Positions 12,583 through 42,361 of a stretch of 42,361 nucleotides of DNA are shown here, one piece after another. This DNA comes from a virus. The notes beneath the pieces are model-generated. The model did no database searches. It was not told the origin of the DNA and saw only the letters and a program-made list of their open reading frames with translations. The DNA is taken from the IMG/VR virus record IMGVR_UViG_3300025769_000251, positions 1 to 42,361 of that record. One strand, 5' to 3'. The number at the start of each line of letters is the position of its first letter. Position 1 is the stretch's first letter. The position numbers and the translations under genes are program-made.

Positions 12583-12584
12583 TT

Positions 12585-12818
12585 ATGAAAGAATATCTTG
12601 AAGTTTCAGGTCATCCGGGCTTAGTTCGTGATCCAGATAACAACGCGATTTTGTCCGTTGATTTTGAAAAAATCGAACGAGCTCGAAGACTGAAAAAAGA
12701 AAAGCTGACCCAAGAACAAATTCAAAGAACGTTTGACAGTAGATTGAGTTCTCTTGAATCTGATATATCTGAAATTAAAGAGGTTCTAAATTCCATAGCA
12801 AAAAACTTATATAAATAA
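12585..12818 (+). CDS. Small conserved-type virion protein with C-terminal coiled coil
   Basis: The 77-residue product starts 2 bases after the large baseplate gene. The N-terminus (GHPGLVRDPDNNAILSVD, residues 9-26) resembles a short segment I associate with small virion proteins of marine T4-like phages. From residue 30 it is a charged helix with heptad-like leucine/isoleucine spacing (LSSLESDISEIKEVLNSIAK), so a short coiled coil is likely. The function is unknown; a trimerisation or adaptor element between baseplate and fibres would fit. The stop codon lies inside the next late promoter. Confidence 0.65.
   Translation: MKEYLEVSGHPGLVRDPDNNAILSVDFEKIERARRLKKEKLTQEQIQRTFDSRLSSLESDISEIKEVLNSIAKNLYK
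12810..12817 (+). promoter_or_regulatory. T4-type late promoter opening the repeat-fibre/modification unit
   Basis: A perfect TATAAATA overlaps the upstream stop codon (TAA 12816-12818) and ends 28 bases before the ATG at 12846. No further intergenic octamer occurs until 19360, so the five genes between them probably form one late transcription unit. Confidence 0.85.
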
Positions 12819-12845
12819 ACCATACACTGATTATAAGTTTTAATA

Positions 12846-20921: not shown

Positions 20922-23900
20922 ATGGCAACACGGAAAAAAATACTATTACCTAGAAGTGACATACCTAATAGGGCCCCCACAATAAACGAAATTGATTTCG
21001 GTGAAATTGCAATCAATACTCATGATGGGCGAGCATTTATTAAACGTGAAGCCAACGGTGAAGTATCAATACAATCTATCGGTTCCGAAGAAGTAGAAAA
21101 TGTATATTATGTTTCTAAGTCAGGATCATATGGAAACGATGGTCGATCGCTTTTAAATTCTTTTAAAACCCTTGATTCTGCGGTAGCTACAGTTCTTACT
21201 AAACAGGGGTTTAAGTTTAATGAAAAGGTTTGTGAGAGAGACCTAAACTTAATCATGGACGCTGTGCGTTATGACATGATTCTATCTACTAATTACAATT
21301 CGGTAACTGCTGGTCTTGCATATAAACGTGGTAACGCTATTAAAGTAACCACTGATCAAAAATATCAAACTAGACGTGCAATCAATGAGGAAAGGGTCGG
21401 AATGATTTCTGCGCCCGAGGTTGTAAACAGTTCTATTGCAACGGAAAGAATAGTTGCTGGGTTTGATGACATCATAGGTATTTTTTATGATGAAACTCCC
21501 GACGATTTATATTTTACAGATCCACCCGTAGAAGTGCAAACAGATGCAAACGCTGCGGCCGCCGCCATACAAGCTAATAGGTCTGCAATTCAGGATGCAG
21601 TAATTGATTATATTAATACAGGTATTATTAGTGGTTATGATGAAGCGAAATGTTCACGAGATGTTGGACTCATTCTTGATGCAGTTTCCCGTGATTTGTT
21701 ATTAGGAACAGAATACAATACTATTACTGCCGGTAACGCTTATCTTCGTGCAAACTCAGCGTATGTTTTAAGCAATCAAAACGAAGCAACCATTGCGGGA
21801 ATAAACTTCGCGAGAGACTATATCACTGCGTTACCTGATGTCACGTCTGACACAGACATAGACAACTTATTCCTTAACGTAACAAATGTTATCGACGGAA
21901 CTGTAACAACTTATCCTGCGATTAGTTACCCTACTACTGCTGGATCTACTTATCAAACCAGTGATCGAATTTCTGCAGCTACAGCATTACAAACAAATCG
22001 TCAAACCCTTATTGATGAGACAACAGAGTATATTAACGAAAACTACACTGGTATTGGTGCGACCTGTGAACGGGATCTTGGGTTTATTCTTGATGCTGTC
22101 CGTAGAGATTTGTTGTTAGGTACAGACTACAATACTATTACTGCCGGTAACGCTTATCTTCGTGCAAACTCAGCATATGTTCTTTCAGATCAAAGCGCGG
22201 TTACAGTTGCATTGGTTAACTATGCAAGAGATCTTGTTAAAGCATTACCCGAAATTAACAGTACTGCATTAATAGACACTTTGTTTGCAAGAGTTACTCA
22301 AGTTTTAGACGGAACTATTACAACAGTTCAACCAGTAACTACTTATGCTGGTAATGGTACATATGCAACATCAAATTTAAGGTTGGCACAATCACTGGAT
22401 TTACAAACTAATCGAGCCACTTTAATTTCTAGTGTTACTAGTTTTATTTCTAGCAATTACCCTGCTCTTGTTTATGATACTGTAGCATGTGAAAGAGATA
22501 CAGGATTTCTTATTGATGCTGTTTCGCACGATCTTTTGTATGATGGGAACACTGCGTCAAGAACGGCTGCGTTGGCATATTTTGTTGGAACCAATTCTCA
22601 ATTGGGTGTTGGCGAAGAGACGGCTACCGTTGCTGCATATGCGCATCTCACGTCTGAAATTCAAGCTTTAACGAACGTTACGGAAGATGCTAGGGTCGCG
22701 ACTTTAATCGATATAACAAGGGACGCAATTACCGCAGGAAATGTTTCTAGTGTTCCCGCTGAAATAGAAGTTTCAACTCTAGGTTTATCTACAACAGAAT
22801 ATGATAACATACTAGCTGAATCTAACACCATTATTTCAAACACAATTGAATATGGAAGAGACAACTATTCTTTTTATGATCAGGATACTTGTGAAAGAGA
22901 TGTCGGTTATATTATAGATGGGTTATCACACGATGTTAAGTATGGTGGTAATACGGCAACAAGAACCAATGCGTTAGCATATTTCGTCGGCGCAACTTCT
23001 CAATTGGGCCCTGACGAAGGCGTTGCAACAGTAGCCGCATACAATGATTTAAAAACAAGAATAAATGTTGTGGTTACTACTGTTCCAGAACAGACGGTTA
23101 TAGGAAGTTTAATTGATGAAATCACCGGAGTTATTACCGCTGGTGATACTGCAGGACTTTCAGCTGAAGTAGAAATAGAAACTGGCGGGTTGACAACAAC
23201 TGAGTTTGATGCAATACAAGCTGCAGTCTCGGATGCGCAAAGTGCAACTATAACGTACATAAACGAAAATTTCTCATCTGCACTTAGTGGTTATGATGCG
23301 GCTAAATGTGCACGAGATGTTGGTCTCATTCTTGATGCTGTAAGAAGAGATCTCATGATTGGATCTGACCACTGGACTGTGACTGCAGGAAACGCTTATC
23401 TTAGAACCAACTCTGCATACGTTTTGAGTAACCAAAGTGTTGCAACTATCCAAGCAGTAGAGTTTGCAAGGGATGAAATCAAAGCATTAACTGACGTAAC
23501 AAATGATGCCACTGTTGATACGTTATTTGAAAAAATAATTGATGTGTTAGACGGAACTTTCACAACACCACAGTCAGTTACGTCTTTACCTGAAAATGGA
23601 ACATATGCCCAGACTCCGTCACGATCTACGCAAACTTCTGACATAGTTTCAAACAGAGCAACATTAATTAGTGGTGTTACATCGTTTATCAATTTGAACT
23701 ATGGTAGTTTTAGTTACGATCAAGCTGCATGTGAAAGAGACACAGGTTTTATAATCGACGCCTTAGTTGCAGATTTATATTATGGTGGTAATACTGCCAG
23801 TAGACAAGCAGCACTTGCATATTTTGTTGGTACAAATAGTCAATTGGGTTCCGGAGAAGAACTTGTAACAATTGCCGCATACAACGATTTAGCTACAAAC

Positions 23901-26900
23901 ATCAAAGCATTAACCAATGTTTTTGAAGATTCAAGAGTTGATGAATTAATAGGTTTAATTACTGAAGTAATATCTTCAGCTTCCGTTGATGGACTTGCGG
24001 ACGAAGTAGAAGTTAGTACTGTAGGATTATCAACAACAGAGTTTGATGCTATAAAAAACAATACGTTGAGTATTCAAAACGGGGTAATTGATTTTGTCAA
24101 TGATATGAACCCAGTTAATAATTTCGATGATGAAAAATGTTTTCGTGACACGGGGTTAATTATTGATGCTCTTGCGGTCGACCTACAGAACAATACTAAT
24201 TACAATAGCACCACTGCTGGACTTGCATACCGTAGAGCTAATGCACAAAAAGTTCAAAGTGACCAGTTGTCATACACAGTTGATTCAATCAATTATTTAC
24301 GAGATCAAATTAATGCTTCAGGAATAAATGATGAAAGTCAAACATTTATTACTGCTAGGATTAAAGAAATCACAGATCTTCTAACCGAATCTACCGAATA
24401 TGGTGCGTATGATGGTGATCCTATTTTCTTTACTGGATCTGGTTCTGAAAATGCAGACAAACGAAATGCTGCAAACGCACTGATTGTTAATCGAAGAACT
24501 ATTCAAAAACAAGTTATTTCTTGGCTTCAGGTTAACTACGATACTTTAGAATACAACCAAGAAAAATGTGAAAGAGACGTTGGTTATATTGTTGATGCGT
24601 TAACTCATGATATTTTATTCGATGGCCAGTTTGGTACAGACACTAATGCTCGGTCTTATTGGGTTGGGGTAGATCTTAACATTGAAAACACGACCACCGC
24701 AGCTGAAAGTTTAGATGGTATTCCGGACATTTGGACCAATCAGTTGGGTGTTGGTGAGGTCGCAGCATCTTCAGCTGCATATGAACAATTAAAAACGATC
24801 ATAAATCAATATATTATCACTACTACAGAAGAAACTAGAGTTTCTACTTTAATAGACGTTATTAAATCATCTATAAATGCAGCTGATGGTTCTGGAATCA
24901 CCACCACTTTGCCAACTATTACAGGTGAGAGTAATCTTTTTTATGTCAACAGAAACACTCTCCAAGAACAAGTGGTCTTTTATGCAAACACCATATTCCC
25001 CGTTTTTTCTTACGATCAAACCAAATGTCGAAGAGATGTTGGTTATATTCTAGATGGACTAACATACGATCTTAAATATGGTGGCAACAGTGCAACGTAT
25101 ACAAATCAGAGATCATATTTTTCTGTTTTCTCAAATGGATATGGTGATCTTTTAGGACAAAATGAAATCACCGCAACGATTGCGGCATACGGCGAATTAA
25201 AATCTATTATCGGAACATATATTTCAGGTCTAGATGCAGGCAACCTAACTAAAGTTCAAACATTATTAGATATCATTATTAATTCAATTCAACAATCTTC
25301 GGTTGGCACTTACCAACTTGGTGATTTTTTTGATGGAGATCAAATATACCAGTATAATATTCCTACGGGTTCTTCTCCTTTGCAGTTTCCGAACTTGATC
25401 ACCCTTGGTTACAAAGTTTTGTTTAATGAGTTATATTTAGCACATCAAATATTCGATGACTCCAAATCGCAACGATTGACTATCATAAGATCTTCAAACG
25501 CTGTAGCAAAAAACCAAGGCACAGATACCACAATATATTTAAAATCCGGTGATTATGTAATTAACAACCCGATTAAATTGCCACCCAAAACTTCAATTAT
25601 TGGCGATGCTTTGCGTTCGACAACAATTCGTCCAAAAAATGTAGATTCAGATATTTTTTGGGCAGATAATGGTGTATATATTAAAGAGATTACTTTCCGA
25701 GATCATCAAAACGGCGCGGCTGTATTATCTTTTGATCCAAGAGTAGACTCGCCGGGTGCTGGACCTTTCATCACACAGTCACCTTATGTACAAAACTGCA
25801 CATCATTAACATCATCAGGCATTGGTCTTAGAATTGATGGATCCAAAGTATCAGGTCTTAGATCAATGGTACTCGACGCATTCACCCAGTTTAATGCTGG
25901 GGGGATCGGTGTTCATCTTTTGAATCGTGGTTATGCTCAGTTGGTATCATTATTTACGGTATCAACGACAACATCTGTTTTAGCTGAAACTGGTGGACAA
26001 TGTTCTCTTACCAACTCAAACTCTTCGTTTGGTGAAAGAGGTCTTGTTGCAACTGGTGGCAGTCCATCTTTATATAATGGTTCTCTTCATGCAAATTATG
26101 TCCAAAACGACAATGTGATTCGCGTCAACAGCATTGTTACTCAAGATGCTGCGGATTATACTCTAAACATTGGTGACTATAAAAAACCAAATTATAATGA
26201 CGCTATTAAATTTGACTCAGATAACTATTACTACACTATTCTAGATGTCTCCGACGAAATAACCAAAGATTGGACCGCAACAGGAAATTCACAAGAATCT
26301 GAAATAGTTGCTCAGGCAAAAAACCTTGATGCAAAATATGGTAATAGTGTTAGTATTAGTTCCGACGATAATTACTTAGTACAATCATCTAGAGACGGTA
26401 TTATCAATCTAGGTGGTGATGTAGAAATTAAAAAGAGAGACATTGTTGGTGGAGTTCCACAATGGGATTATCAACAAACTCTTGTTCCGGTGCCAACTTT
26501 TGGTACTGCGACAGCGGATTTTGATTTTGGTACAAAAGTAATATTAAATGAAAACGGGTCATATCTTGCAGTCAGTGCGCCTGGACAACAGAATGTTGAT
26601 GGTGCAAGTGGTGCTACGCAAAATAATGGCGCAATATACACTTATCGCAGAACTAATGAAACTTGGACACAGGATGCTGTCATATCATTACCGGAAGTAT
26701 CAGACCGTTCTAGATTTTTTAGTCGTTCTTTTGATATGTCAGAAAACGGATTGTGGATTGCATCTTCAACGGCAAATGATCTTACAGCTGGTGGCCAAGG
26801 CGCATGTTACATTTACAATAGAACGGCTCCAGAATCATCCACATGGACTCAGACACAAAGGATTACTATACCTGATGGTGTTGGTGCTAGTGTACAAGAA

Positions 26901-28211
26901 CCGGAAGTAACAATTAACGAAGATGGTACTGACTTGTTGATAATGTGGAAAGGACAACTCAACAAAGTCTACTACTATCAAAGGAACATTGATAATATAT
27001 TCATTTTAGCACAGATTGTTGTACCGAGATCTAATTTTAGTGGAACCAGAGATAGTAAAATTAAACTAGCACAAAACACCACTCATTTTGTAATGGGCGA
27101 CCAAAACTCACCTAGAGGTTATTTCACTAATACTTCAACTGATAGTGACCAAGGTGCATCTTTCCAATATGCGAAAAAACAAAAACTGAATAATGTTGTG
27201 ATATCCAATTCACCACCTAGAATTACAACCTCGGATACTGATCGGTGGATAAATTTTGAAACAGATTTTCCAATAAACACTACAGTTGAAATTGTTGGCG
27301 CTGACACAAATGACGGGACTTATACTATTGCTGGTAGAACGGCCAACACAATAGATTTTGTTGAAGTTTTTCCTACGCCGGGAACATTTACCGATGTACA
27401 AATTTATTTGAATGGATCGGGCGTTTCTGAATTCTTTGTATTCGATGAAGGCCAGTGGATAACTGAAGATATCATTGAAGCACCATATAACACTCCTGCA
27501 TCGTTCGGGTACGGATTTGATGTCGATATTAACACTCGTGGTGATTTATCAACCGTAGGAAATAACCCAAGTAACAGTAATATTTCTAACGAAGTTTCTG
27601 TTATTGAACGCGCTCGCAGTGATTGGAGAAGGGTTACTCGGTTAGAACCCCAAACACCCACAGATGCTGCAACTATAGGCAATGATGGATATGGTGGTGC
27701 AGGACACTCAACCACAGTCGGAGGTTCTGGAGACTACATCGTAATTGGCGCAAGGGATCGTAGAGAAGACTTGGTTGATGCAAACACAAAATACGGTGCG
27801 GTTTTTACATATTATTCTATCCTAGATGAAACTGGATCTTATGAAATTACTGTTGCGCCTGCATTAAATGTCAATATGAAATCATTACAAAACGTAAGTT
27901 TTCATCAAAGATCATTAATTACTGCATCGGGTCATACTTTCGAGTATGTGGGATCTGGAACTAATATGTTTACAGCGATTCCACAAAACGGGGGTGTTCC
28001 GAAAAAAGAAAACGAAATACAATTTGATTCAGCAGAATCAAGTCAACCCAATTTTGGTCTTGTATATTTCACTGCAACAGATGAAAGGGGAGACTTTAGA
28101 ATTGGAGAAGATTTAACTATTAACAGAGAAGAAGGTAATATTACTGGTATAACATTCGATAGATCGTTATTTGCAGTATTGACGCCGTTCATATTAGCAC
28201 TAGAGGGATAA
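20922..28211 (+). CDS. Giant fibre/adhesin: Cys-x-x-Asp repeats, beta-helix and embedded beta-propeller
   Basis: The 2429-residue product starts with RSDIPNRAPTINEIDFGEIA, a phage fibre attachment motif. VYYVSKSGSYGNDG (about 60-75) starts a parallel-beta-helix element. Residues about 103-1400 hold ten repeats of about 120-150 residues headed by C-x-R-D-x-G-x-I-x-D (for example CERDVGYIIDGLSHDVKYGG). A beta-helix follows (SGDYVINNPIKLPPKTSIIG, about 1543-1562, to about 1726). Residues about 1780-2310 look like an FG-GAP-type beta-propeller (FGTKVILNENGSYLAVSAPG, GAIYTYRR, YIVIGARD), interrupted near 2085-2165 by an Ig-like insert. The C-terminal 120 residues, ending SLFAVLTPFILALEG, resemble the end of other marine phage fibres. 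It is probably a side or long tail fibre. It ends one base before the next ATG. Confidence 0.75.
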   Translation: MATRKKILLPRSDIPNRAPTINEIDFGEIAINTHDGRAFIKREANGEVSIQSIGSEEVENVYYVSKSGSYGNDGRSLLNSFKTLDSAVATVLTKQGFKFNEKVCERDLNLIMDAVRYDMILSTNYNSVTAGLAYKRGNAIKVTTDQKYQTRRAINEERVGMISAPEVVNSSIATERIVAGFDDIIGIFYDETPDDLYFTDPPVEVQTDANAAAAAIQANRSAIQDAVIDYINTGIISGYDEAKCSRDVGLILDAVSRDLLLGTEYNTITAGNAYLRANSAYVLSNQNEATIAGINFARDYITALPDVTSDTDIDNLFLNVTNVIDGTVTTYPAISYPTTAGSTYQTSDRISAATALQTNRQTLIDETTEYINENYTGIGATCERDLGFILDAVRRDLLLGTDYNTITAGNAYLRANSAYVLSDQSAVTVALVNYARDLVKALPEINSTALIDTLFARVTQVLDGTITTVQPVTTYAGNGTYATSNLRLAQSLDLQTNRATLISSVTSFISSNYPALVYDTVACERDTGFLIDAVSHDLLYDGNTASRTAALAYFVGTNSQLGVGEETATVAAYAHLTSEIQALTNVTEDARVATLIDITRDAITAGNVSSVPAEIEVSTLGLSTTEYDNILAESNTIISNTIEYGRDNYSFYDQDTCERDVGYIIDGLSHDVKYGGNTATRTNALAYFVGATSQLGPDEGVATVAAYNDLKTRINVVVTTVPEQTVIGSLIDEITGVITAGDTAGLSAEVEIETGGLTTTEFDAIQAAVSDAQSATITYINENFSSALSGYDAAKCARDVGLILDAVRRDLMIGSDHWTVTAGNAYLRTNSAYVLSNQSVATIQAVEFARDEIKALTDVTNDATVDTLFEKIIDVLDGTFTTPQSVTSLPENGTYAQTPSRSTQTSDIVSNRATLISGVTSFINLNYGSFSYDQAACERDTGFIIDALVADLYYGGNTASRQAALAYFVGTNSQLGSGEELVTIAAYNDLATNIKALTNVFEDSRVDELIGLITEVISSASVDGLADEVEVSTVGLSTTEFDAIKNNTLSIQNGVIDFVNDMNPVNNFDDEKCFRDTGLIIDALAVDLQNNTNYNSTTAGLAYRRANAQKVQSDQLSYTVDSINYLRDQINASGINDESQTFITARIKEITDLLTESTEYGAYDGDPIFFTGSGSENADKRNAANALIVNRRTIQKQVISWLQVNYDTLEYNQEKCERDVGYIVDALTHDILFDGQFGTDTNARSYWVGVDLNIENTTTAAESLDGIPDIWTNQLGVGEVAASSAAYEQLKTIINQYIITTTEETRVSTLIDVIKSSINAADGSGITTTLPTITGESNLFYVNRNTLQEQVVFYANTIFPVFSYDQTKCRRDVGYILDGLTYDLKYGGNSATYTNQRSYFSVFSNGYGDLLGQNEITATIAAYGELKSIIGTYISGLDAGNLTKVQTLLDIIINSIQQSSVGTYQLGDFFDGDQIYQYNIPTGSSPLQFPNLITLGYKVLFNELYLAHQIFDDSKSQRLTIIRSSNAVAKNQGTDTTIYLKSGDYVINNPIKLPPKTSIIGDALRSTTIRPKNVDSDIFWADNGVYIKEITFRDHQNGAAVLSFDPRVDSPGAGPFITQSPYVQNCTSLTSSGIGLRIDGSKVSGLRSMVLDAFTQFNAGGIGVHLLNRGYAQLVSLFTVSTTTSVLAETGGQCSLTNSNSSFGERGLVATGGSPSLYNGSLHANYVQNDNVIRVNSIVTQDAADYTLNIGDYKKPNYNDAIKFDSDNYYYTILDVSDEITKDWTATGNSQESEIVAQAKNLDAKYGNSVSISSDDNYLVQSSRDGIINLGGDVEIKKRDIVGGVPQWDYQQTLVPVPTFGTATADFDFGTKVILNENGSYLAVSAPGQQNVDGASGATQNNGAIYTYRRTNETWTQDAVISLPEVSDRSRFFSRSFDMSENGLWIASSTANDLTAGGQGACYIYNRTAPESSTWTQTQRITIPDGVGASVQEPEVTINEDGTDLLIMWKGQLNKVYYYQRNIDNIFILAQIVVPRSNFSGTRDSKIKLAQNTTHFVMGDQNSPRGYFTNTSTDSDQGASFQYAKKQKLNNVVISNSPPRITTSDTDRWINFETDFPINTTVEIVGADTNDGTYTIAGRTANTIDFVEVFPTPGTFTDVQIYLNGSGVSEFFVFDEGQWITEDIIEAPYNTPASFGYGFDVDINTRGDLSTVGNNPSNSNISNEVSVIERARSDWRRVTRLEPQTPTDAATIGNDGYGGAGHSTTVGGSGDYIVIGARDRREDLVDANTKYGAVFTYYSILDETGSYEITVAPALNVNMKSLQNVSFHQRSLITASGHTFEYVGSGTNMFTAIPQNGGVPKKENEIQFDSAESSQPNFGLVYFTATDERGDFRIGEDLTINREEGNITGITFDRSLFAVLTPFILALEG
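21229..25120 (+). repeat. Ten degenerate repeats headed by Cys-x-x-Asp-x-x-x-(I/L)-(I/L/M/V)-D
   Basis: Heads lie near 21230, 21650, 22065, 22485, 22890, 23305, 23730, 24135, 24565 and 25025, about 420 bases apart. Two subtypes alternate irregularly: one with NAYLRxNSAYVL and one with ALAYFVGxxSQLG. A 47-base stretch is identical in repeats two and three (21714-21760 and 22128-22174). Confidence 0.85.
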
Positions 28212-28618: not shown

Positions 28619-30430
28619 ATGTCTCAGTTGACCACTATATCAGGATACGTTCCAACTCGTTCAGCTGATGAGCTAGAAGACGATAGGTATGAATTTCTGA
28701 CCTTAGATCAGGCTGAACCAAATCCTGGCAATCCAGAGGAGGATGGTTCGCTTTTCATTTCTGATGCTGACGGCACCAGATCTTTTACAACTAGTCCTAC
28801 GTTAACTGGATTGAATTTTCAAGCTAACACATTATCAGATTTATCATTTAGACCGTCACAATATTATCTAGTCTTATCTGGTGATCCGACAGACGGGATT
28901 GTCGATTCTGTAGGATGGTCTACTTTAGTAGAAGTTGACACATTACAAACTGTTACTGAACGGGGTAATGTTACAGACGAAAATATTACAATAGCTGATC
29001 TCGTATCTCAAAAAATAACAGCTGACAGTGCAAACTTTTCAGGCGCTGTCACTATTACTGAGTTTTTGACCGTTGGAAATAATACCGGAGTTGGTGGTAA
29101 CTTAATTGTTTCGGGTGATACCAACATAACCCTTGATCTCAATGTTACTGGAATAACAACATTATCAGACAGTGCAGTTGTACAAAATAAATTTTTCTTA
29201 GAAAATATAGGTGAAAAAACTGACGAAAATAAAATCTTGTATAGAAGACAATCGGATGGTCTTATATTACAGGGTGATCTTGATGCAGAAAATATTGATA
29301 AGGTTAACATTGGTGAAACCGATTCTAACGTAACGCATTATCCTCTTTTCAGTTATGCAAACAATGCTACGCCTGGATTTGATAGTGTTTATGCTGACTT
29401 TTCTGCGTACACATATCAACCATTTACCAACACTCTTTCTGTTCAAAACTTCGATGTTAACAACATTGTTGCAACGGGCATAACCGATTTAGATTCTACA
29501 TTTATTGCGGGTGATGTTCGAATACAAACAGCTGCAGGCAGATTATTAGATAGTGCTGGTAGATCATTTGTAGTGTATGACTCTGCAGGCGCTTTACTTT
29601 GGGGTAATAATGGTATTCCGGCCGGCGATGCAACCACCGGCGAAATACAACCGATACCTATCAACCTTACGGATTTATTAGATGTTGACGCACCAAATCC
29701 CAACGCTAATGATGTTATAGCATACAACGCTATAACTCAAAAATGGGAACCTGTTCCTAACGCTGGGGGTGGTGGTGGAATTTCTTTAACCGATTTAGAT
29801 GCGTTAACCTTGCCTCCAGCTGGTACGGGCGATTTGTCATACGACAACACTACTGGTATTTTTAGTTACACCCCACCAGTACTTCCATCATCTTTATTAG
29901 ATTTGGGCATCCTTGATGGATTAAATCAACAGATATTGTCTACAGATGGTAATGGAAATTTCACTTTTATAGATAATGTAGGTGATAGTGCCACAGGCAA
30001 TGTGAGGGTATCGCAAACTGTACCTACGGCACCTTTAGGTGTTAACAGCACTACTAATATTGAATTTAATCAGATAGGCAAGTCATTTATTTTGTATAAT
30101 ATTACTGTAGATAGTGCATGTTGGATAAGAATATATTCAGATACTTCCAGCAGAACTGCTGATGCGGGAAGATCTCAGGGACAAGAGCCTATAGAAGGTT
30201 CTGGTGTCATTGCGGAGTTTATAGCATCATCCCCAACAACATTTAAAGTAACGCCTGGTGTCAACGGTTATGCCGACACCGAAAACGAAATTCCAGTCGC
30301 AATTACTAATTTGGCGGCATATGAAACAGCATTTAATGTATCCATGGATGTATTAAAATTAGAAAATAACAATCCATTGATACCAACTTATACAATAAGT
30401 GGTCCAGCAACGATCGACGAGGACGGATAA
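28619..30430 (+). CDS. Fibre protein ending inside a Calx-beta-like domain
   Basis: The 603-residue product has an N-terminal attachment part (GYVPTRSADELEDDRYEFLT), then beta-helical shaft modules (NLIVSGDTNITLDLNVTGIT, about 160-180). These are followed by LLDVDAPNPNANDVIAYN and QKWEPVPNAGGGGG (about 350-387), a fibre motif that ends in a glycine hinge. Residues about 455-585 form a domain with SACWIRIYSDTSSRTADAGR that recurs in marine phage fibres. The last 15 residues ([15 protein letters not shown]) are the first strand of the Calx-beta-like repeat that continues in the giant gene just downstream. That gene is in the same frame, separated only by TAA and CGC. Either a longer protein has been split, or the stop is read through at some rate. 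Confidence 0.75.
   Translation: MSQLTTISGYVPTRSADELEDDRYEFLTLDQAEPNPGNPEEDGSLFISDADGTRSFTTSPTLTGLNFQANTLSDLSFRPSQYYLVLSGDPTDGIVDSVGWSTLVEVDTLQTVTERGNVTDENITIADLVSQKITADSANFSGAVTITEFLTVGNNTGVGGNLIVSGDTNITLDLNVTGITTLSDSAVVQNKFFLENIGEKTDENKILYRRQSDGLILQGDLDAENIDKVNIGETDSNVTHYPLFSYANNATPGFDSVYADFSAYTYQPFTNTLSVQNFDVNNIVATGITDLDSTFIAGDVRIQTAAGRLLDSAGRSFVVYDSAGALLWGNNGIPAGDATTGEIQPIPINLTDLLDVDAPNPNANDVIAYNAITQKWEPVPNAGGGGGISLTDLDALTLPPAGTGDLSYDNTTGIFSYTPPVLPSSLLDLGILDGLNQQILSTDGNGNFTFIDNVGDSATGNVRVSQTVPTAPLGVNSTTNIEFNQIGKSFILYNITVDSACWIRIYSDTSSRTADAGRSQGQEPIEGSGVIAEFIASSPTTFKVTPGVNGYADTENEIPVAITNLAAYETAFNVSMDVLKLENNNPLIPTYTISGPATIDEDG
30419..30423 (+). promoter_or_regulatory. Shine-Dalgarno-like GAGGA for the giant gene
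   Basis: GAGGA lies inside the last codons of the upstream gene, 10 bases before ATG 30434. It supports independent initiation or re-initiation at the giant frame after the TAA at 30428-30430. Confidence 0.5.
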
Positions 30431-30433
30431 CGC

Positions 30434-31945
30434 ATGGCAAATGTTTATACAGTTACCACTACAAATTTAGTTTCTGGAACAGGAACTTTATATTGGACAA
30501 TTGATGGTAATACATCCGATTTTGTGGAGGTTAGTGGCACCATAGAAATTGTTCAGAATACGGGAACGTTTGAAATCACAGCATTGGCTGACAATGCCGC
30601 CGAAGGTCCCGAAGCTTATACGATTAGTCTTAGAACAGGTTCTATAACTGGACCTGTTGTAGAAACTTACTCATTAACGGTTCTTGACACTTCTGCGCCT
30701 GAACCTACATATGATTTAACCGGACCTGCCACCATTGACGAAGATGGTCTTAATAATACTTACACCGTTACTACTACTAATTTTCCAGACAATAATTTAT
30801 ACTGGACTATTAACGGTACGGTTGCTGATTTTGCCGTTATTAGTGGTACGGTCCCAATTGTTTCCGGTTCAGGAACTTTTGATATTTCTGCTTTGGAAGA
30901 CAGTATTACTGAAGGTGATGAAAACTTTACAATCAGTTTAAGAGAAGGTTCCATTAATGGGGCTGTTGTTGATACATTAGGCATCACGGTTATTGATACT
31001 TCTCTCAACGCTCCTACGTACAATTTAACCGGACCAATTACAATTAACGAAGATGGTCTTAACAACACTTATACAATTACCACAACTTTTGTTCCAGATA
31101 CAACTGTACTTTACTGGACTATTAATGGTACTACTGCTGACTTTACTGCCATCAATGGATCATCAGTAATTACATCTAACTCAGGCACATTCGATATTTC
31201 CGCCATTGTTGATGCGTTAACAGAAGGCGATGAAATCTATACGATCAGTTTAAGAACCGATTCAATTTCTGGTACAGTAGTAGACACCCTAGAAATTACT
31301 GTTATCGACACTTCGTTAGATGTGGCATATGATTTGACTGGTCCTACTACTATAGAAGAAACTGGTTTACCGAATACTTATACAATCACAACAACTTCTG
31401 TTCCTGACGCTACAACGCTTTACTGGACCATTAATGGTACTACTGCTGACTTTACGGCTATTAATGGATCATCAGTAATTACATCTAGTTCCGGAACCTT
31501 TGATCTTACTGCTATAGCTGACAATTTGACAGAAGGCGATGAAATCTATACGATCAGTTTAAGAACCGATTCAATTTCTGGTACAGTGGTAGACACTCTA
31601 GAAATTACTGTCACCGATACTTCGTTAAGCCCACCAACCTATGATTTAACTGGGCCTATTAGTATCAACGAAACTGATTTACCAAATACTTATACAATCA
31701 CAACAACTTCTGTTCCTGACGCTACAACGCTTTATTGGACTATTAATGGTACTACTGCTGACTTTACTGCCATCAATGGATCATCAGTAATTACATCTAA
31801 CTCAGGCACATTCGATATTACCGCCATTGCAGATGAATTGCTTGAAGGTAGTGAAAACTACACGATTAGTTTGAGAACAGATTCCATCTCGGGAACCGTA
31901 GTTGATACTTTAGATATTACAGTCAACGACACGTCGATTCCGTCG
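30434..31945 (+). repeat. Five Calx-beta-like domain repeats (about 306 bp each)
   Basis: Domains begin about 30434 (its first strand lies in the upstream gene), 30701, 31007, 31319 and 31628. The last three share long near-identical stretches such as the codons for [18 protein letters not shown], indicating recent duplication. Confidence 0.85.
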
Positions 31946-34900
31946 ATCTTCTACCCATTGACTGGTGAAGCAGAATCTATCTTGAACGCTACGTGGATTT
32001 CCAATTACGCTCCAGCGAGTTATCGATTTGATACAACGCCTGGAGCTGAAGGTATTAGGGTTGATATAGGAGACCCTATTACTAATATGAATCAGATGTT
32101 CAAAGATAAAAATACATTCAACAATGCGGATATTGGTTCTTGGGATGTAAGTACTGTTACTAATATGCTTAATATGTTTGATGGGGCAGAAGCGTTCAAT
32201 CAAGACATCGGTTCTTGGGATGTAAGTAATGTCACACGTATGGATTTTATGTTCAACATATTTAGTGGTACATCTACTTTCAATCAAGACATTAGTGGTT
32301 GGAATACAAGCAGTGTCACACGCATGGATGCTATGTTCAAAAATGCAACAGTATTCAATCAAGACATTAGTTCTTGGGATACATCTAGTGTTACTAATAT
32401 GAATTTTATGTTCGATAATGCTGCAGCATTTGATCAAAACCTGAATGCTTGGGATGTATCATTAATACCGTCACTACCCGAAGGCTTCGATACTAACACG
32501 CCATTATTCACGGTTGACGAACATCCTTTTTGGGGTACTGATGGTACAGGCATCTTGTATCCATTAACCAACACTGCAACAGATCCTACCAGCACAACAT
32601 GGCGTACCAATTATGGTACTGCAGCAGGATACCAGTTCATTCCTAATGTTGGTATCTTAATGCCAGCAGGAACACCTATTACTGATATGCTAGAGATGTT
32701 CTATGGAAATGCTACGTTTAATGATCCCGATATATCTGTTTGGGACACGTCTAGTGTTACTACTATGCAAAGTATGTTCACCAATGCCTCATCATTCAAT
32801 CAAGATATTAGTTCTTGGGATGTGAGTAGTGTTACCAATATGAGTAGTATGTTCTTTCAAGCTTATGCATTCAATAATGGAGGTGTAGCATTAAACGGCA
32901 CCTTTGCTAGTACTATGACTAGTGTTCTTAATATGAATAATATGTTTAGAAATGTTGACGCATTCAATGCAGACATTAGTTCTTGGGATGTGAGTAGTGT
33001 TACCAATATGAGTAATATGTTACAGGACGCCAATGTATTCAATCAAAATATTGGTTCTTGGGATGTGAGTTCTGTTACCAATATGGCTTATATGTTTGAA
33101 GGTGCTGATCTATTCAATCAAGATATTGGTTCTTGGGATGTGAGTTCTGTTACCAGTATGAATTATATGTTCCAAAATGCCTTTGTGTTTGATCAAGACA
33201 TTAGTGGATGGAATGTGTTGAATGCTAGTGTTGCACCAGGCAATCCAACTCCACCAACAAACTTTGATCTCAATACACCCGTCACTTGGATAACAGCAGA
33301 GAAACCACAATGGGGTACAGACGGTTCCATCTTCTATCCATTAACGGGTGAAGTAGAAACAGTTCTTAGTTCAACTTGGAGAACGGCTAACTCTGGTAAT
33401 TACACTTGGGATGCAACTCCTGGCGCAGAAGGCATTCGAACTCCTACTACGCAACCCATTACTGATATGACTTCTATGTTTGAAGGTTCCAGCACGTTTA
33501 GCAACTCTGATGTTGCTGCTTGGGATGTAAGCACTGTTACCAATATGAGCAGTATGTTCAAAGATGCATCTAGATTTGGTAGTGAACCTGGACTACTTTA
33601 CACGTTAAATAATCCTAATGCTTATGGTACAAGTCAAGATGATTTTTTTGGAAACTCAGTAGCAACGTCAGGTACATATTCTATCGTAGGTGCTTATGCT
33701 GAAGATGATGCTGGTGGTAATACTTCAGGTAAAGCTTATATCTACAACAATGTCACTGGTGCTTTGTTACACACATTAGATAATCCTACTGCTTATGGTA
33801 CTAGTGCAGGTGATTATTTTGGTTGGTCAGTAGCAATATCAGACACCTATGCTATTGTAGGTGCTTATGCTGAAGATGATGCTGGTGGTGATGGTTCAGG
33901 TAAAGCTTATATTTACAACAATGCCACTGGTGCTTTGTTACACACCTTAAATAATCCTACTGCTTATGGTACAAGTGTAGGTGATTTCTTTGGACACTCA
34001 GTAGCAATATCTGACACATATGCTATTGTAAGCGCTCGTAATGAAGGTGATGCTGGTGGTACTCAATCAGGTAAAGCTTATATCTTTGATAACGCCACTG
34101 GTGCTTTGTTACACACATTAAATAATCCTAATCCTTATGGTACAAGTGTTTTTGATCAGTTTGGAGAGTCAGTAGGAATAACTGATACCTATGCTATTGT
34201 AGGTGCTGTTTATGAAGATGATGCTGGTGGTACTGAATCAGGTAAAGCTTATATTTACAACACAGTCACTGGTGCATTACTTCACACTTTAAATAATCCT
34301 AATGCTTATGGTACAAGTCAAGATGATCTTTTTGGAAACTCAGTAGCAATATCTGATACATATGCTATTGTAGGTGCTAAGACTGAAGATGATGCTGGTG
34401 GTACTAATTCAGGTAAAGCTTATATCTTTAACACAGCCACTGGTGCTTTACTACACACATTAGATAATCCTAATGCTTATGATACAAGTCTGAATGATAA
34501 TTTTGGAACCTCAGTAGCAATAACTGATACCTATGCTATCGTAGGTGCTCGTCAAGAAGATGAAGCTGGTGGTAATACTGGTTCAGGTAAAGCTTATATC
34601 TTCAACACAGCCACTGGTGCTTTACTGCACACCTTAGACAATCCTAATGCTTATGATACAAGTCTGAGTGATCTTTTTGGAACCTCAGTAGCAATATCTG
34701 ATACCTATGCTATCGTAGGTGCTAATAGAGAAGATGATGCTGGTGGTACTGATTCAGGTAAAGCTTATATCTTCGATTTAACTGCACCCTCTTCTTCGTG
34801 GAGTATATCTAATTGGGACACTAGTTCTGTCACCAATATGTCTTCTATGTTCCAAAACGCCTCCGTGTTTGATCAAGATCTTAACACATGGGTGACAACT

Positions 34901-37900
34901 TCTGTCACCAACATGCAAAGTATGTTTGATGGTGCAACAGCATACAACAATAGCATAGGCCAACTAGCTCATACCTTAGACAATCCTAATGCTTATGATA
35001 CAAGTGCAGGTGATCTTTTTGGAGTATCAGTAGCAACATCAGGCACTTATGCTATCGTAGGTGCTTATGATGAAGATGATGCTGGTGGTGTTAGTGCAGG
35101 TAAAGCTTATATCTTTAACACAGTCACTGGTGCTTTGTTACATACATTAGACAATCCTACTGCTTATTTTACAAGTGGGGCTGATACTTTTGGATCGTCA
35201 GTAGCAATATCTGACACTTATGCTATCGTAGGTGCTCAGCAAGAAGATGATGCTGGTGGTGGTAATTCAGGTAAAGCTTATATCTTTGATAACGCCACTG
35301 GTGCTTTACTACACACCTTAGATAATCCTAATGCTTATGGTACAAGTGCAGGTGATAACTTTGGAGCGGCAGTAGCAATATCTGACACTTATGCTATCGT
35401 AGGTGCCCGTGGTGAAGGTGATGCTGGTGGTACTGATTCAGGTAAAGCTTATATCTTCAATACAGTCACTGGTGCTTTGTTACACACATTAGATAATCCT
35501 AATGCTTATGGTACAAGTGCCGATGATTTTTTTGGAGTCAAAGTAGCAATATCAGATACCTATTCTATTGTAGGTGCTCAGAATGAAGATGATGCTGGTG
35601 GTACTGATTCAGGTAAAGCTTATATCTACAACAATGCTACTGGTGCTTTAGTACATACTTTAAATAATCCTAATGCTTATGATACAAGTGCGAGTGATTA
35701 TTTTGGAAACTCAGTAGCAATAACTGATACTTATGCTATCGTAGGTGCTCGTTTAGAAGATGATGCTGGTGGTACTGGTTCAGGTAAAGCTTATATCTTC
35801 AATACAGCCACTGGTGCTTTGTTACATACTTTAGATAATCCTAATGCTTATGATACAAGTGTTGATGATAGGTTTGGAGACTCAGTAGCAATAACTGATA
35901 ACTATGCTATTGTGGGTGTTCGTTTAGAAGATGATGCTGGTGGTGATAGTTCAGGTAAAGCTTATATCTTTGATAACGCCACAGGTGCTTTACTTTATAC
36001 TTTAGACAATCCTAATGCCTATGGTACAAGCTTTACTGATAACTTTGGATACTCAGTAGCAATATCTGACACCTATGCTATCGTAGGTGCTTATATTGAA
36101 GATGATGCTGGTGGTGATAGTTCAGGTAAAGCTTATATCTACAATTTAAATGGTATATCCGGTTGGGACACTGGTGCTGTTACTAACATGAATTCTATGT
36201 TCAAGGATGCCTCAGCATTTGATCAAAACCTAAATGTTTGGGATGTATCATTAATACCGTCATACCCAACAGACTTTGATACTAACACGCCATTATTCAC
36301 GGTTGACGAACATCCTGTCTGGGGCACTGACGGTACATACACACTATATCCATTGAGCAATACAACTAACGACCCCACCAGTGCTACATGGCGAACTAAT
36401 TACGCTCCTAATTATGTGTGGGTAGATAATGTGGGTCTTTATACTGATGGTCCTATAACAAATGCGGCCAATATGTTTCAAAACAATGCAACGTTCAATG
36501 ATCCAGACATATCCACGTGGGATGTGAGTGCCGTGGATGGAGGCTCACCATTTGGATTTACCAACATGTTCGCAGATTGTACTTCTTTTAATCAAGACTT
36601 ATCTGCTTGGGATACAAGTAACGCTGGATCAATGGCGGGTATGTTCTCCGGCAGCGCCTTTAACCAAGACATTAGTTCTTGGAATGTAAGTAATGTTAGA
36701 AGTTTCTTAGCAATGTTCCAAAACGCAACCGCATTCAATAACGGTGGAGTTGCACTCACTTGGTCTACCTTCGCTAGTAGTAATATAACCATGATTAGTA
36801 TGTTTAGAAATTGTCCTTTCAATCAGGATATTTCAACATTTGACATGAGTGGTGTTACTGATATGCAATATATGTTCTTTGATAATTCCGCGTTCAATCA
36901 GGACATTAGTGGTTGGGATGTAAGTGGAGTAACTAATCCTAATAATATGAGGTATGTTTTCAAAAACGCTACAGCATTTGATCAAAATTTGAATGCTTGG
37001 GATGTTTCGACCATACCTTCATTACCACTAGATTTTGAAACTAACACGCCATTATTTGACGTTGCTGAACATCCTATCTGGGGTACTGATGGTACTATCT
37101 TGTATCCATTAACGGGCGAAGCAGAATCTATTTTGGATCCCACATGGATTTCTACTTACGCTCCAACCAGTTATGTTTGGGATGCAACACCAGGCGCTGA
37201 AGGTATTCGTGTAAAAGCGAATGATCCTATTACAAACATGGAAAGAATGTTCCTTAATGGTGGTTCGCCTGGCGATGGTGGAGTTAGTAGTACATTTAAT
37301 AATTCTGATGTTTCATCTTGGGATGTCAGCACTGTTACTAATATGAAAAATATGTTTCGTTATTGCCCATCTTTTAACCAACCATTGGATTCGTGGGATG
37401 TGAGTAATGTTACTAATATGGAGGCTATGTTCCAGATTCAACTGACGGTCGGATCGTTCAACCAACCATTGAATTCATGGAATGTAAGTAATGTTACTGT
37501 TATGAATGGTATGTTTTACAATCAGTCTGCATTCAATGGAAACATTAGTTCTTGGAATGTGGGTAATGTTACTGATATGAATAATATGTTCAATGGCACC
37601 GCATTCAATCAAGATATTGGTTCTTGGAATGTCTCTAATGTTACAACCATGAGCAATATGTTTAATAATGCTTCAACATTCAATCAAGATATCGGTTCTT
37701 GGGATGTGAGTAGTGTTACTAATATGGTAGCTATGTTCGCCAATGCTTCATCATTCGATCAAGACATTAGTTCTTGGAACGTGTTGGCGGCTAGTGTTGC
37801 TCCAGGCGATCCAACTCCACCAACAAACTTTGATCTCAACACTAATGCCAGTTGGACAGCAGCAGAGAAACCTCTTTGGGGTACTGATGGTACAGGCATC

Positions 37901-40900
37901 TTGTATCCATTAACCAATACAGCTACAGATCCTACCAACACAACATGGCGCACCAATTATGGCACTGCAGCTGGATACTCGTTTATTCCAAACGTTGGTA
38001 TTCTAATGCCAGCAGGAACTCCACTAACAAGCATGTACTGGATGTTCAAATCAAATACTACGTTTAATGATCCTGATATTTCAACGTGGGATGTGAGTAC
38101 TGTTACAAACATGGTGGAAACGTTCAGCGGCGCGACATCCTTTAATCAACCTTTAAGTTCTTGGAACGTAAGCAATGTCACCGACATGACAGCATTGTTC
38201 CAAAATGCAGATGTATTTAACCAAGACATTAGTTCTTGGAATGTGTCTAATGTCACCAGTATGGATAGTATTTTTAATTTTGCTATTGCTTATAATAATG
38301 GTGGTGCAACATTTTTAGGTAGTACTTTTTCTAGTACAATAAGCAATGTTACAAATATGTTCAAATTTTTTAGGTATGCTGGTGTTTTCAATCAAGACAT
38401 ATCTGACTGGAACACTAGTTCTGTTACAAACATGAATCAGATGTTTGATAATGCTACAGCGTTTGATCAAAACTTGAATGCTTGGAACGTTACTAACATA
38501 CCGTCACTACCATCAGGCTTCGATACTAACACGCCATTATTCACTACTGACGAACATCCTTTTTGGGGTACGTCAGGTGGTATCTTATATCCGTTAAGCA
38601 ACACGGCTACAGATCCTACCAGCACACTTTGGCGTACCAACTATGGTACTGCAGCTGGATATTCGTTTTCTGCAAACGTTGGTATCTTAATGCCAGCAGG
38701 ATCACCTATTACTAATATGCAACAGATGTTCGCTGGAAATGCATCCTTTAATGATCCTGATATTGCAACATGGGACGTTAGTACTGTTACGAGCATGGGG
38801 AGTACGTTTAGTGGTGCAACCTCATTCAATCAAGACATTAGTTCTTGGGATATGACTAACGTCACTTTTGCAACAAATATGTTTTATAACGCCACAAATT
38901 TCAACCAAGATATTAGTGGTTGGAATGTAAGCAATGTTAATAGTTTCAGTAATATGTTTTATGGTGCTTCATCATTCAACCAACCAATTGGTATTTGGAA
39001 CATAACTGGCGCTAACAGTTTGGCAAGTATGTTCTTCGGCGCTACCGCATTCAATCACGATATTAGTTCTTGGAATACATCTAGTATTACTAATATGTAC
39101 GAAGTTTTCAGAAACGCAACCTCATTCAACAATGGCATAGGTCAAGTAGCTCGTACTTTAGATAATCCTAATCCTTATGGTACAAGTCAAAATGATAATT
39201 TTGGATACTCAGTAGCAACATCAGGTACATATTCTATTGTAGGTGCTTATCAAGAAGATGATGTTGGTGTTACTAATTCAGGTAAAGCTTATATTTACAA
39301 CAATGCCACTGGTGCTTTAGTACATACTTTAGATAATCCTAATGCTTATGATACGAGTCAAGGTGATTCTTTTGGAACCGCAGTAGCAATATCAAATACC
39401 TATGCTATCGTAGGTGCTTATCAAGAAGATGATGCTGGTGGTGTTAGTTCAGGTAAAGTTTATATCTTCAACAATGCCACTGGTGCTTTAGTACATACTT
39501 TAGATAATCCTAATGCTTATGATACAAGTCAAAGTGATCTTTTTGGATACTCAGTAGCAATATCTGACACCTATGCTATCGTAAGTGCCGTTGGTGAAGA
39601 TGATGCTGGTGGTACTGCTTCAGGTAAAGCTTATATTTACAACACTGTCACTGGTGCTTTACTCCACACATTAGATAATCCTAATGCTTATGATACAAGT
39701 TTGAATGATAACTTTGGAAACGCAGTAGCAATATCAGGTACTTATGCTATCGTAGGTGCTTATCAAGAAGATGAACCTAGTGGTCCACTAGGTAGTGGTA
39801 CTAATTCAGGTAAAGCTTATATTTACAACAATGCTACTGGTGCTTTGGTACACACCTTAGACAATCCTAACGATTATGGTCCAGCTGGAGGTGATAATTT
39901 TGGAATATCAGTAGCAATATCAGATAACTATGCTATTGTAGGTGCTTATTGGGAAACTTATTCTGGTGGTACTACTTCAGGTAAAGCTTATATCTTCAAC
40001 ACAGTCAGTGGTGCTTTACTCCATACCTTAGATAATCCTAATGCTTATGGTACTAGTGCGGGTGATTATTTTGGAATATCAGTAGCAATATCTGATACAT
40101 ATGTTATTGTAGGTGCTAATCGAGAAGATGATGCTGGTGGTACTGAAGCAGGTAAAGCATACATCTACAACAATGCCACTGGTGCTTTAGTACATACTTT
40201 AGATAATCCTAATGCTTATGATGCAAGCAATGGTGATTATTTTGGACAATCAGTAGCAATAACTGATACTTATGCTATTGTAGGTGCTCCTTATGAAGAT
40301 GATGCTAGTGGTGGTGGTTCAGGTAAAGCTTATATTTACAGTCTAAATGACATATCCGGTTGGGATACTGGTGCTGTTACTAATATGCAAAGTATGTTCA
40401 ATGGTGCTTCATCATTTGATCAAAACCTAAATGCTTGGGATGTATCATTAATACCGTCATACCCAACAGACTTTGATACTAACACGCCATTATTCACGGT
40501 TGACGAACATCCTGTCTGGGGCACTGCTGGCGGTATCTTGTACCCGTTAAGCAATACCGCAACAGATCCTACCAGTAGTGATTGGCGTACCAACTATGGT
40601 ACAGCTGCTGGATATCAGTTCAGTGCAAACGTTGGTATTTTAATGCCAGCAGGAACACCATTAGCTGATATGCAAAGCATGTTTTACGGTAACGCCACAT
40701 TTAATGATCCTGACATCTCATCTTGGGATGTAAGCACTGTTACCAATATGACCCAAGCGTTTCGTGATGCAGTTGCATTTAACCAAGACATTAGTTCTTG
40801 GGACACATCTAGTGTTACTGATATGAGTAGTATGTTCAACGGAGCTAGCATATTTAACCAACCGATCGGTTCTTGGGATGTGAGTAATGTTACTAGTTTG

Positions 40901-42361
40901 AGTAATATGTTCAACACTGCTACTGCATTTGATCAAGATCTTAGTGGTTGGGATGTCAGTCTCAATTCCAATCTAAATTATGTTTTTACACAATCTTCAT
41001 TTAACAATGGGGGTGTTGCAACACTACCTTGGAATACTTCTAGTGTTATTTCCGCGGCCGGTACTTTTTCAGGCAATTCGTCGTTCACCGCAGACATTAG
41101 TTCTTGGGATATGAGCAATGTTACTAATATGAGTGAAATGTTCTACAATGCTAGAATTTTCAATCAAGACATCGGTTCTTGGAATGTAAGTAGTGTTACT
41201 GATATGTCTTCTATGTTCCGTGATGCTAGTTTATTTGCCAGTGAGGCTGGACTAGTTCATACATTAGATAATCCTAATCCTTATGGTACAAGTGAAAGTG
41301 ATCTTTTTGGAACCTCAGTAGCAACATCAGGCACATATTCTATCGTCGGTGCTTATCAAGAAGGTGATGCTGGTGGTACTCAATCAGGTAAAGCTTATAT
41401 CTACAACAATGCCACTGGTGCTTTAGTACATACATTGAATAATCCTAATGCTTATAGTACAAGTGCAAGTGATCAGTTTGGAGAGTCAGTAGCAATATCT
41501 GATACATATGCTATTGTAGGTGCTAAGAGTGAAGGTCAACCTAGTGGTACTCAATCAGGTAAAGCTTATATCTTCAACAATGCCACTGGTGCTTTAGTAC
41601 ATACTTTAGATAATCCTAATGCTTATTCGACACCTACCTTGGATCTATTTGGACAATCAGTAGCAATATCTGATACATATGCTATTGTAGGAGCTCCACG
41701 TGAAGATGAACTAGAGTCATCACCAGGAGCGGCTGACGGCACTGAATCAGGTAAAGTTTATATCTTCAACACAGCCACTGGTTCTTTAGTGAGAACATTG
41801 AGTAATCCTAACCCTTATGGTACTAAATTAAATGATTATTTTGGACAATCAGTAGCAATATCAGATAACTATGCTATCGTAGGTGTCCGTAATGAAGATG
41901 ATGCTGGTGGTACTGAATCAGGTAAAGCTTATATCTACAACCCAGCCACTGGTGCTTTACTCCATACCTTAGATAATCCTAATGCTTATGGTACAAGTGC
42001 AGGTGATAATTTTGGATACTCAGTAGCAATAACAGATACCTATGCTATCGTAGGTGCTCGTTATGAAGATGATGCTGGTGGTACTGATTCAGGTAAAGCA
42101 TATATCTACAACACAGTCACTGGTGCTTTACTACACACATTAGGTAATCCTAATGCTTATGATACAAGTGCAAGTGATAATTTTGGACACTCAGTAGCAA
42201 TATCTGATACCTATGCTATTGTAAGTGCTTTTTTTGAGGATGATGCTGGTGGTAATCAATCAGGTAAAGCTTATATCTTTGATATTGCAACTGGTTCATT
42301 ACTTTATACTTTAGACAATCCTAATGCTTATGATACAAGTGTTAATGATTATTTTGGTTGG
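30434..42361 (+). CDS. Giant modular adhesin: Calx-beta-like domains, BspA-type repeats and seven-bladed propellers (3' partial)
   Basis: The frame stays open from ATG 30434 to the window end, at least 3976 residues. Residues 1 to about 503 are five Calx-beta-like domains (core [19 protein letters not shown]). From about residue 506 come 25-residue BspA/DUF285-type repeats ([20 protein letters not shown]), arranged in modules that start with a YPL cap ([20 protein letters not shown]) and often end in [17 protein letters not shown]. Four blocks of FG-GAP-like blades ([16 protein letters not shown], then SGKAYI) interrupt the solenoid; the three complete ones have seven blades each. All parts are known as extracellular adhesive or protein-binding folds, so a giant receptor-binding fibre is likely. 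No enzyme domain, signal peptide or membrane helix is seen. Repeats this close to identical make mis-assembly possible. The true C-terminus lies outside the window. Confidence 0.85.
31949..33592 (+). repeat. BspA/DUF285-type solenoid, block A
   Basis: Repeats of 25 residues with [17 protein letters not shown]-x-x-M-F. YPL caps lie near 31952, 32560 and 33335. The block is interrupted at 33593 by propeller 1. Confidence 0.9.
33593..34780 (+). repeat. Beta-propeller 1: seven FG-GAP-like blades, 171-bp period
   Basis: Seven SGKAYI motifs occur between about 33730 and 34770. Each blade is about 57 residues: [11 protein letters not shown], then [16 protein letters not shown], an acidic EDDAGG loop and SGKAYIYN. 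The first blade has the variant [13 protein letters not shown]. Confidence 0.9.
34781..34963 (+). repeat. BspA-type spacer between propellers 1 and 2
   Basis: Only about two BspA repeats ([17 protein letters not shown] and [14 protein letters not shown]) separate the two propellers, so they would sit side by side on the solenoid. Confidence 0.85.
34964..36151 (+). repeat. Beta-propeller 2: seven FG-GAP-like blades
   Basis: Seven blades with GKAYI motifs between about 35100 and 36140. The total length is 1188 bp, identical to propeller 1. The first blade reads [13 protein letters not shown]. Confidence 0.9.
36152..39145 (+). repeat. BspA/DUF285-type solenoid, block B (longest)
   Basis: About 1000 residues of 25-residue BspA repeats divided by YPL caps near 36345, 37095, 37905 and 38590. 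Three of its four modules repeat the closing FDTNTPLF-type segment; the one closing near 37830 uses a FDLNTNASW variant instead. Confidence 0.9.
39146..40351 (+). repeat. Beta-propeller 3: seven FG-GAP-like blades
   Basis: Seven blades, 1206 bp in total. The fourth blade carries a short extra loop ([13 protein letters not shown]) that accounts for most of the added length. The first blade again reads [13 protein letters not shown]. Confidence 0.9.
40352..41251 (+). repeat. BspA/DUF285-type solenoid, block C
   Basis: One partial module and one full module with a YPL cap near 40542 and about nine repeats. The block is left at 41252 by propeller 4. Confidence 0.9.
41252..42361 (+). repeat. Beta-propeller 4: six complete blades and the start of a seventh
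   Basis: Six SGK(A/V)YI motifs are visible, and a seventh blade begins [15 protein letters not shown] before the window ends. The first blade carries the [13 protein letters not shown] signature. Blade three has a longer acidic loop ([17 protein letters not shown]). Confidence 0.85.

What the first reader, a model, noticed from the sequence alone, without database searches (positions are those of the whole stretch)
30380..30470. Single in-frame TAA splits a Calx-beta-like domain between two fibre genes
The 603-residue gene ends in [15 protein letters not shown], then TAA, CGC, ATG and [11 protein letters not shown] in the same frame. In the next domain the same elements are continuous ([15 protein letters not shown] followed by [11 protein letters not shown]). 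So one domain is cut by a stop, with a new start two codons later and a GAGGA upstream. This could be a recent nonsense mutation, a deliberate split giving two chains that complement each other as a split domain, or low-level readthrough giving a fusion of more than 4500 residues.
Basis: partly seen in the sequence, partly recalled or inferred. Interest (0 to 1): 0.75.

Follow-up and report, generated by a model that had tools for sequence, protein, structure and literature searches.

The report
Gene boundary inside a fibre domain
In an uncultured marine phage, the end of a tail-fibre protein carries one strand of a folded domain whose remainder begins the next, giant adhesin-like protein, so the two chains may clip together like a split protein tag, although this was not tested.

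Summary
In detail: the 603-aa fibre gene ends [18 protein letters not shown], and CGC-ATG-ANVYTV continues in frame. It is not a simple nonsense mutation: read through, the joint is two codons longer than 35 of 36 aligned units and one longer than the other, and the new ATG has the strongest Shine-Dalgarno pairing of 17 listed starts.

The upstream protein is a T4-like fibre with a C-terminal knob. In 80 of 80 best-matching viral loci the gene stops 0-3 residues after the knob's LxLE, so the window's 20-residue tail, a Calx-beta-like A strand, is unique there. In 12 orthologs the next gene is a subtilase; elsewhere subtilase and Calx-beta-like repeats share one gene. A cassette rearrangement probably left the boundary inside the first repeat.

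The cut falls in a loop; read through, the strand docks confidently (pLDDT 94.5). Best reading: two separate chains rejoined by strand complementation. A functionless scar is the main rival. Readthrough and sequencing error are unlikely but not excluded.

The parts
28619..30430 (+). fibre gene, 603 aa, orthologous to 738-1018-aa fibre genes in marine viral contigs
30080..30367 (+). C-terminal knob domain (PHROG 9627/15343-like), residues 488-583, ending LKLEN
30368..30427 (+). 20-residue tail [20 protein letters not shown] beyond the canonical end; its last 15 residues (30383-30427) are the A/A' strand of a Calx-beta-like unit
30419..30423 (+). Shine-Dalgarno GAGGA inside the Asp-Glu-Asp codons, 10 nt before the ATG
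30428..30430 (+). TAA stop of the fibre gene
30434..42361 (+). giant downstream gene, at least 3976 aa, runs off the window; starts MANVYTV at strand B
30434..30694 (+). unit 0: Calx-beta-like unit lacking its A strand (profile positions 21-107)
30698..31936 (+). four complete Calx-beta-like units (30698-31003, 31007-31315, 31316-31624, 31628-31936)
31946..42361 (+). BspA-type DUF285 repeats and FG-GAP_2 repeats

Best explanation
The TAA/ATG is a real, used gene boundary that sits in the A'-B loop of a Calx-beta-like beta-sandwich. It most likely arose when the cassette downstream of the knob fibre was exchanged, so that a Calx-beta-like repeat array (which in other phages follows a subtilase domain) came to lie directly after the knob; the ribosome stops and restarts in the first inter-strand loop. 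Two chains are made: the fibre protein with an A-strand peptide at its C terminus, and a giant adhesin-like protein whose first domain lacks that strand. The peptide most likely fills the gap in the giant protein's first domain and so docks it non-covalently to the fibre tip. Shown: sequence, frame, the unique tail, a strong SD, an intact strand sequence, a cut in a predicted loop. Inferred: the evolutionary route, and above all the docking in trans.
For: Joint read directly. The knob gene ends 0-3 aa after LxLE or its equivalent in 80 of 80 viral loci (62 distinct C-terminal sequences), in 12 of 15 loci from the fibre-ortholog scan (of the other three, two run off the contig and one has a different C terminus), in 5 of 5 phage records examined and in 7 of 8 MAG loci. 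So the tail is added. The A-strand peptide is intact: against unit 1, 2 codons identical, 10 synonymous, 3 non-synonymous, versus 26/20/30 in the body (Fisher p 0.028). SD -8.0 kcal/mol, best of 17 starts. Read-through model pLDDT 94.5, strands 8-12 and 16-18 followed by loop 19-25 holding the stop (residue 22), then strand 26-33. Subtilase plus Calx-beta-like repeats in one ORF in L003, L108, L115, L123, L139; subtilase after the orthologous fibre genes (PF00082 for L152); no subtilase match in the window.
Against: No second genome with the same split was found: the exact-pattern scan gave 2 loci, neither with a Calx-beta context, so conservation of the split is untested. The strand's codon pattern could have been fixed before the split; the excess of synonymous change is seen against units 1 and 2 (10:3, 9:5) but not against units 3 and 4 (5:8, 4:8). 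The truncated unit is predicted to fold almost as confidently without the strand (94.3), so the strand may not be needed. No two-chain prediction could be run. A comparable A-strand peptide in L121 lies in decayed, non-functional-looking sequence.
Confidence: 0.48

Rival explanations
1. Recombination scar: the two proteins are made separately as described, but the 20-residue tail and the missing A strand are leftovers of a cassette exchange and do not pair.
For: The locus is a swap site: the next gene differs between this phage and its orthologs. Decayed Calx-beta debris at a gene boundary exists in L121. Unit 0 without its strand still gives a confident model.
Against: The tail still carries an intact A strand differing from unit 1 mostly by synonymous codons. 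The cut falls in a loop, where a split domain can reassemble.
Confidence: 0.35
2. Low-level readthrough of the TAA gives a minor fusion of more than 4500 residues in addition to the two separate proteins.
For: Both parts are in one frame and the read-through domain folds well in prediction. Optional Ig-like extensions by recoding are known in phages (PMC5009743, passages).
Against: TAA is the usual stop here (13 of 17 listed genes); no unusual RNA fold, z +0.8; the ATG with a strong SD makes readthrough unnecessary; in relatives the gene after the knob is out of frame in 74 of 80 loci, so a fusion is not a conserved need.
Confidence: 0.07
3. Recent nonsense mutation or assembly error in a fused knob-Calx-beta gene.
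For: The record is a single IMG/VR viral contig; no reads could be inspected and no second copy was found.
Against: A one-base change does not explain two extra codons together with an MA start and the strongest SD in the window. No fused knob-Calx-beta gene was seen among 80 knob loci.
Confidence: 0.1

Closest known systems
Donor-strand complementation in chaperone-usher pili
   Same: An Ig-like beta-sandwich lacking one strand is completed by a strand from a neighbouring chain (PMC10104325, passages).
   Different: Here the donor would be the C-terminal tail of a phage fibre and the missing strand is the first (A), not the last; no chaperone or usher is known here; pairing in trans is not shown.
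T4-superfamily gp37-gp38 fibre tip (phage S16)
   Same: A trimeric fibre followed by a separate tip adhesin docked without covalent bonds (PMC6851490, passages).
   Different: S16 gp38 docks by a tryptophan-tipped helical bundle; here a beta-strand tail is proposed. Homology to gp37/gp38 was not tested.
Ig-like domains added to phage structural proteins by frameshifting (phages T3, A2, SPP1)
   Same: A mobile Ig-like domain joined to a virion protein at a translational boundary (PMC5009743 and PMC8718954, passages).
   Different: There one chain is extended by frameshifting; here the joint is in frame with its own strong start and cuts inside the domain.
Split CnaB2 (SpyTag/SpyCatcher), recalled, from no call
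   Same: A beta-sandwich divided into a short strand peptide and the remainder that can reassemble.
   Different: Engineered and covalent; nothing here suggests an isopeptide bond.

Membership tests
Calx-beta domain (PF03160) | score above Pfam's curated cut-off | tested here: not met
   25.1 bits against 27 for tail plus units 0-1; 20.9 for the whole giant protein. Hence called Calx-beta-like.
Calx-beta domain (PF03160) | Calx-beta fold | tested here: inconclusive
   Foldseek best matches are NCX1 CBD12 (E 9e-8) and CALX CBD12; VIA Z 10.1, rmsd 10.7 over 200 residues for 3us9, but other Ig-like chains score 9-10.
Donor-strand complementation | a domain lacking one strand in its own chain | tested here: met
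   unit 0 covers profile positions 21-107 only; the A strand lies before the stop.
Donor-strand complementation | the strand is supplied by another chain | not testable with these tools
   only single chains could be folded; the read-through chain docks the strand in cis.
Donor-strand complementation (chaperone-usher) | dedicated chaperone and usher | not tested
   none was searched for; none appeared among the families matched.
Phage Ig-like extension by recoding | one chain extended by frameshift or readthrough | tested here: inconclusive
   same frame, but a separate ATG with SD -8.0 and no notable RNA structure; protein products unknown.
gp37-gp38 type fibre plus tip adhesin | fibre gene directly followed by an adhesin gene | tested here: inconclusive
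   gap of 3 nt and adhesin-like repeats DUF285 and FG-GAP_2 downstream; that the giant protein is an adhesin is inferred from its repeats.
gp37-gp38 type fibre plus tip adhesin | helical attachment domain with conserved tryptophans | not tested
   no comparison with gp38 was run.

The most novel reading that the evidence does not exclude
A natural split beta-sandwich used as a snap joint in a virus: the fibre's C-terminal tail is the missing first strand of a giant adhesin's first domain, so a protein of nearly 4000 residues or more is mounted on the fibre by strand complementation, and cassettes can be exchanged by cutting a repeat array at an inter-strand loop. L140, where another Calx-beta-like unit is divided by TAATG with an SD of -7.4 at a different loop, would be a second instance.
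Probability: 0.4. Interest if true: 0.75.

Novelty: new variant of a known kind. Interest (0 to 1): 0.5.

Why it matters
If the strand pairs in trans, phages use heterotypic strand complementation to mount exchangeable giant adhesins on a conserved fibre, which would explain how such cassettes can be swapped without a dedicated attachment domain and would supply a natural split-domain pair for protein engineering. If not, it is a clear snapshot of a cassette exchange that leaves a gene boundary inside a domain.

Tried and rejected
Close DNA relatives: none in the phage collection. Single-protein scans with the fibre protein found nothing and with unit 0 four domain relatives only. Alternative genetic code: rejected, TAA ends 13 of 17 listed genes. 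RNA structure as a readthrough signal: none. Solved relatives by sequence: none convincing for the fibre, knob or unit profiles. The Calx-beta-like profile found no relatives in genome contigs. Papers: 'Calx-beta' with phage and tail fiber 0; donor strand complementation with bacteriophage and tail fiber 0; stop codon readthrough with phage and tail fiber 3, search listing only; cyanophage with tail fiber and BspA 0; Calx-beta with bacteriophage 3, none on phage proteins by title; strand complementation with phage, adhesin and receptor-binding protein 1, on pili. A one-base loss at an older stop (LEN then TAA) as the origin of the tail was considered; it cannot be tested with what was found.

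Survey for other interrupted Calx-beta-like units: 346 matches in 142 loci, several loci being overlapping parts of one contig, and three loci that copy the window left out. Interrupted: window, L140 (TAATG, frame change), L108 (frame change near a run of A), and L121/L169 (one contig, decayed remnant). A sequencing indel cannot be excluded for L140 and L108.

Full report
What is there. The window is a 42361-base IMG/VR virus record. It holds a T4-like tail region: an amidase-like gene, baseplate hub and wedge genes, then fibre genes. The fibre gene 28619-30430 ends in [21 protein letters not shown] and ATG follow, and the frame continues into a gene that runs off the window after 3976 residues. 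The giant protein has four complete Calx-beta-like units after a first unit without its A strand, then DUF285 and FG-GAP_2 repeats.

It is not one changed codon. Between EDG and the B strand the joint has stop-R-M-A-N, where the next unit has L-N-N. In alignment A4, 35 of 36 other rows are two residues shorter here and one (L109) is one shorter. The ATG is followed by GCA, as at 3342, 3942, 7141, 19397, 20922 and 28213, and the GAGGA before it gives the lowest anti-SD duplex energy (-8.0) among 17 listed starts, three of which are mechanical TTG starts; 0.57% of 1053 other ATGs in the window do as well. TAA ends 13 of 17 listed genes, so it is not a sense codon here. The joint RNA has no special fold (z +0.8).

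The tail is the odd part. The fibre gene's C-terminal domain is a knob found widely in marine T4-like phages. Of 15 loci from a scan with the fibre N terminus, 12 keep the same end (six of them alike in the stretch printed), two run off the contig and L159 has another C terminus. Five phage records agree, as do 7 of 8 MAG loci, the eighth being a weak 29% match. Only the window carries [20 protein letters not shown] after it.

What normally follows. In the 12 orthologs the next gene is a subtilase-like protein of about 610-640 aa, overlapping the fibre stop as TAATG in ten and following it directly in two (L154, L155); Pfam confirms Peptidase_S8 for L152, the others resting on similarity to it. 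In five loci, three of them near-identical, a subtilase match and Calx-beta-like repeats share one ORF (L003, L108, L115, L123, L139); L036 has knob, then subtilase with a weak Calx-beta-like match. The window has no subtilase match. So loss or replacement of a subtilase part between knob and repeats is a simple route to this arrangement; that is inference.

Is the strand still a strand? The tail's last 15 residues differ from unit 1 at 3 positions, with 10 further codons changed synonymously and 2 identical; the body of the units shows 26 identical, 20 synonymous, 30 non-synonymous (Fisher p 0.028, one comparison chosen as the nearest neighbour). Against unit 2 it is 9:5, but against units 3 and 4 it is 5:8 and 4:8, so the signal is not general, and the changes may predate the split. 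The read-through chain folds with mean pLDDT 94.5: strands 8-12 and 16-18 from the tail, a loop 19-25 that holds the stop, then strand 26-33. The chain without the tail also folds (94.3), with pLDDT 81 at residues 11-20. Best fold matches are the Calx-beta pairs of NCX1 and CALX, while the Pfam score stays under its cut-off; I therefore write Calx-beta-like.

How it most likely works. Translation of the fibre gene brings ribosomes onto the SD inside its last codons; they stop in the A'-B loop and restart two codons later. The fibre's tail then offers an A strand next to a nascent giant protein whose first domain lacks exactly that strand. Completion of the domain in trans would mount the giant protein on the fibre tip. 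Separate translation I hold very likely; pairing in trans I put a little under one half, because no second genome with this split was found (2 pattern hits, neither a relative by context), no two-chain model could be run and the truncated unit may be stable alone.

Recurrence. In 346 unit matches over 142 loci, three other interruptions appear: L140, where the unit is cut at another loop by TAATG with an SD of -7.4 (about 1.6% of 4760 ATGs as strong); L108, a frame change near a run of A; and L121/L169, a decayed remnant. A natural tendency of these arrays to be cut at gene boundaries is possible, but indels in assembly could explain L140 and L108.

Known comparators. Donor-strand complementation in pili (PMC10104325, passages), the S16 gp37-gp38 fibre tip (PMC6851490, passages) and Ig-like extensions by frameshifting (PMC5009743 and PMC8718954, passages) each share one feature; in the passages read none has a gene boundary inside a domain shared by two virion proteins, and the paper searches listed under Tried and rejected found no report of one.

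Noticed in passing
L140:1936-6443: A baseplate-region gene ends inside a Calx-beta-like unit (..SAGDFL, TAATG) and the next gene continues the unit in another frame with a strong SD; a second split unit or an assembly indel.
   Followed up: partly
L108:5664-6019: Calx-beta-like unit after a subtilase domain broken by a frame change near a run of seven A, with about 15 extra residues.
   Followed up: partly
L121:1081-1330: Decayed remnant of a Calx-beta-like gene between two genes, ending with an A-strand peptide.
   Followed up: partly
window 20922-28211: The 2429-aa protein gives a Phycobilisome match just above cut-off (24.7 against 22.2 bits), unexpected for a virion-type protein.
   Followed up: no
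window 31946-42361: Alternating blocks of DUF285 (18 stretches) and FG-GAP_2 (27 stretches) repeats in one open frame that runs off the window.
   Followed up: no
L239-L245: Phage knob genes lie in contigs binned as MAGs of Euryarchaeota, Gammaproteobacteria, Bacteroidetes and Planctomycetes, suggesting viral contigs in those bins.
   Followed up: no
window 12583-12845: A 263-nt stretch without a listed gene in an otherwise tightly packed region.
   Followed up: no
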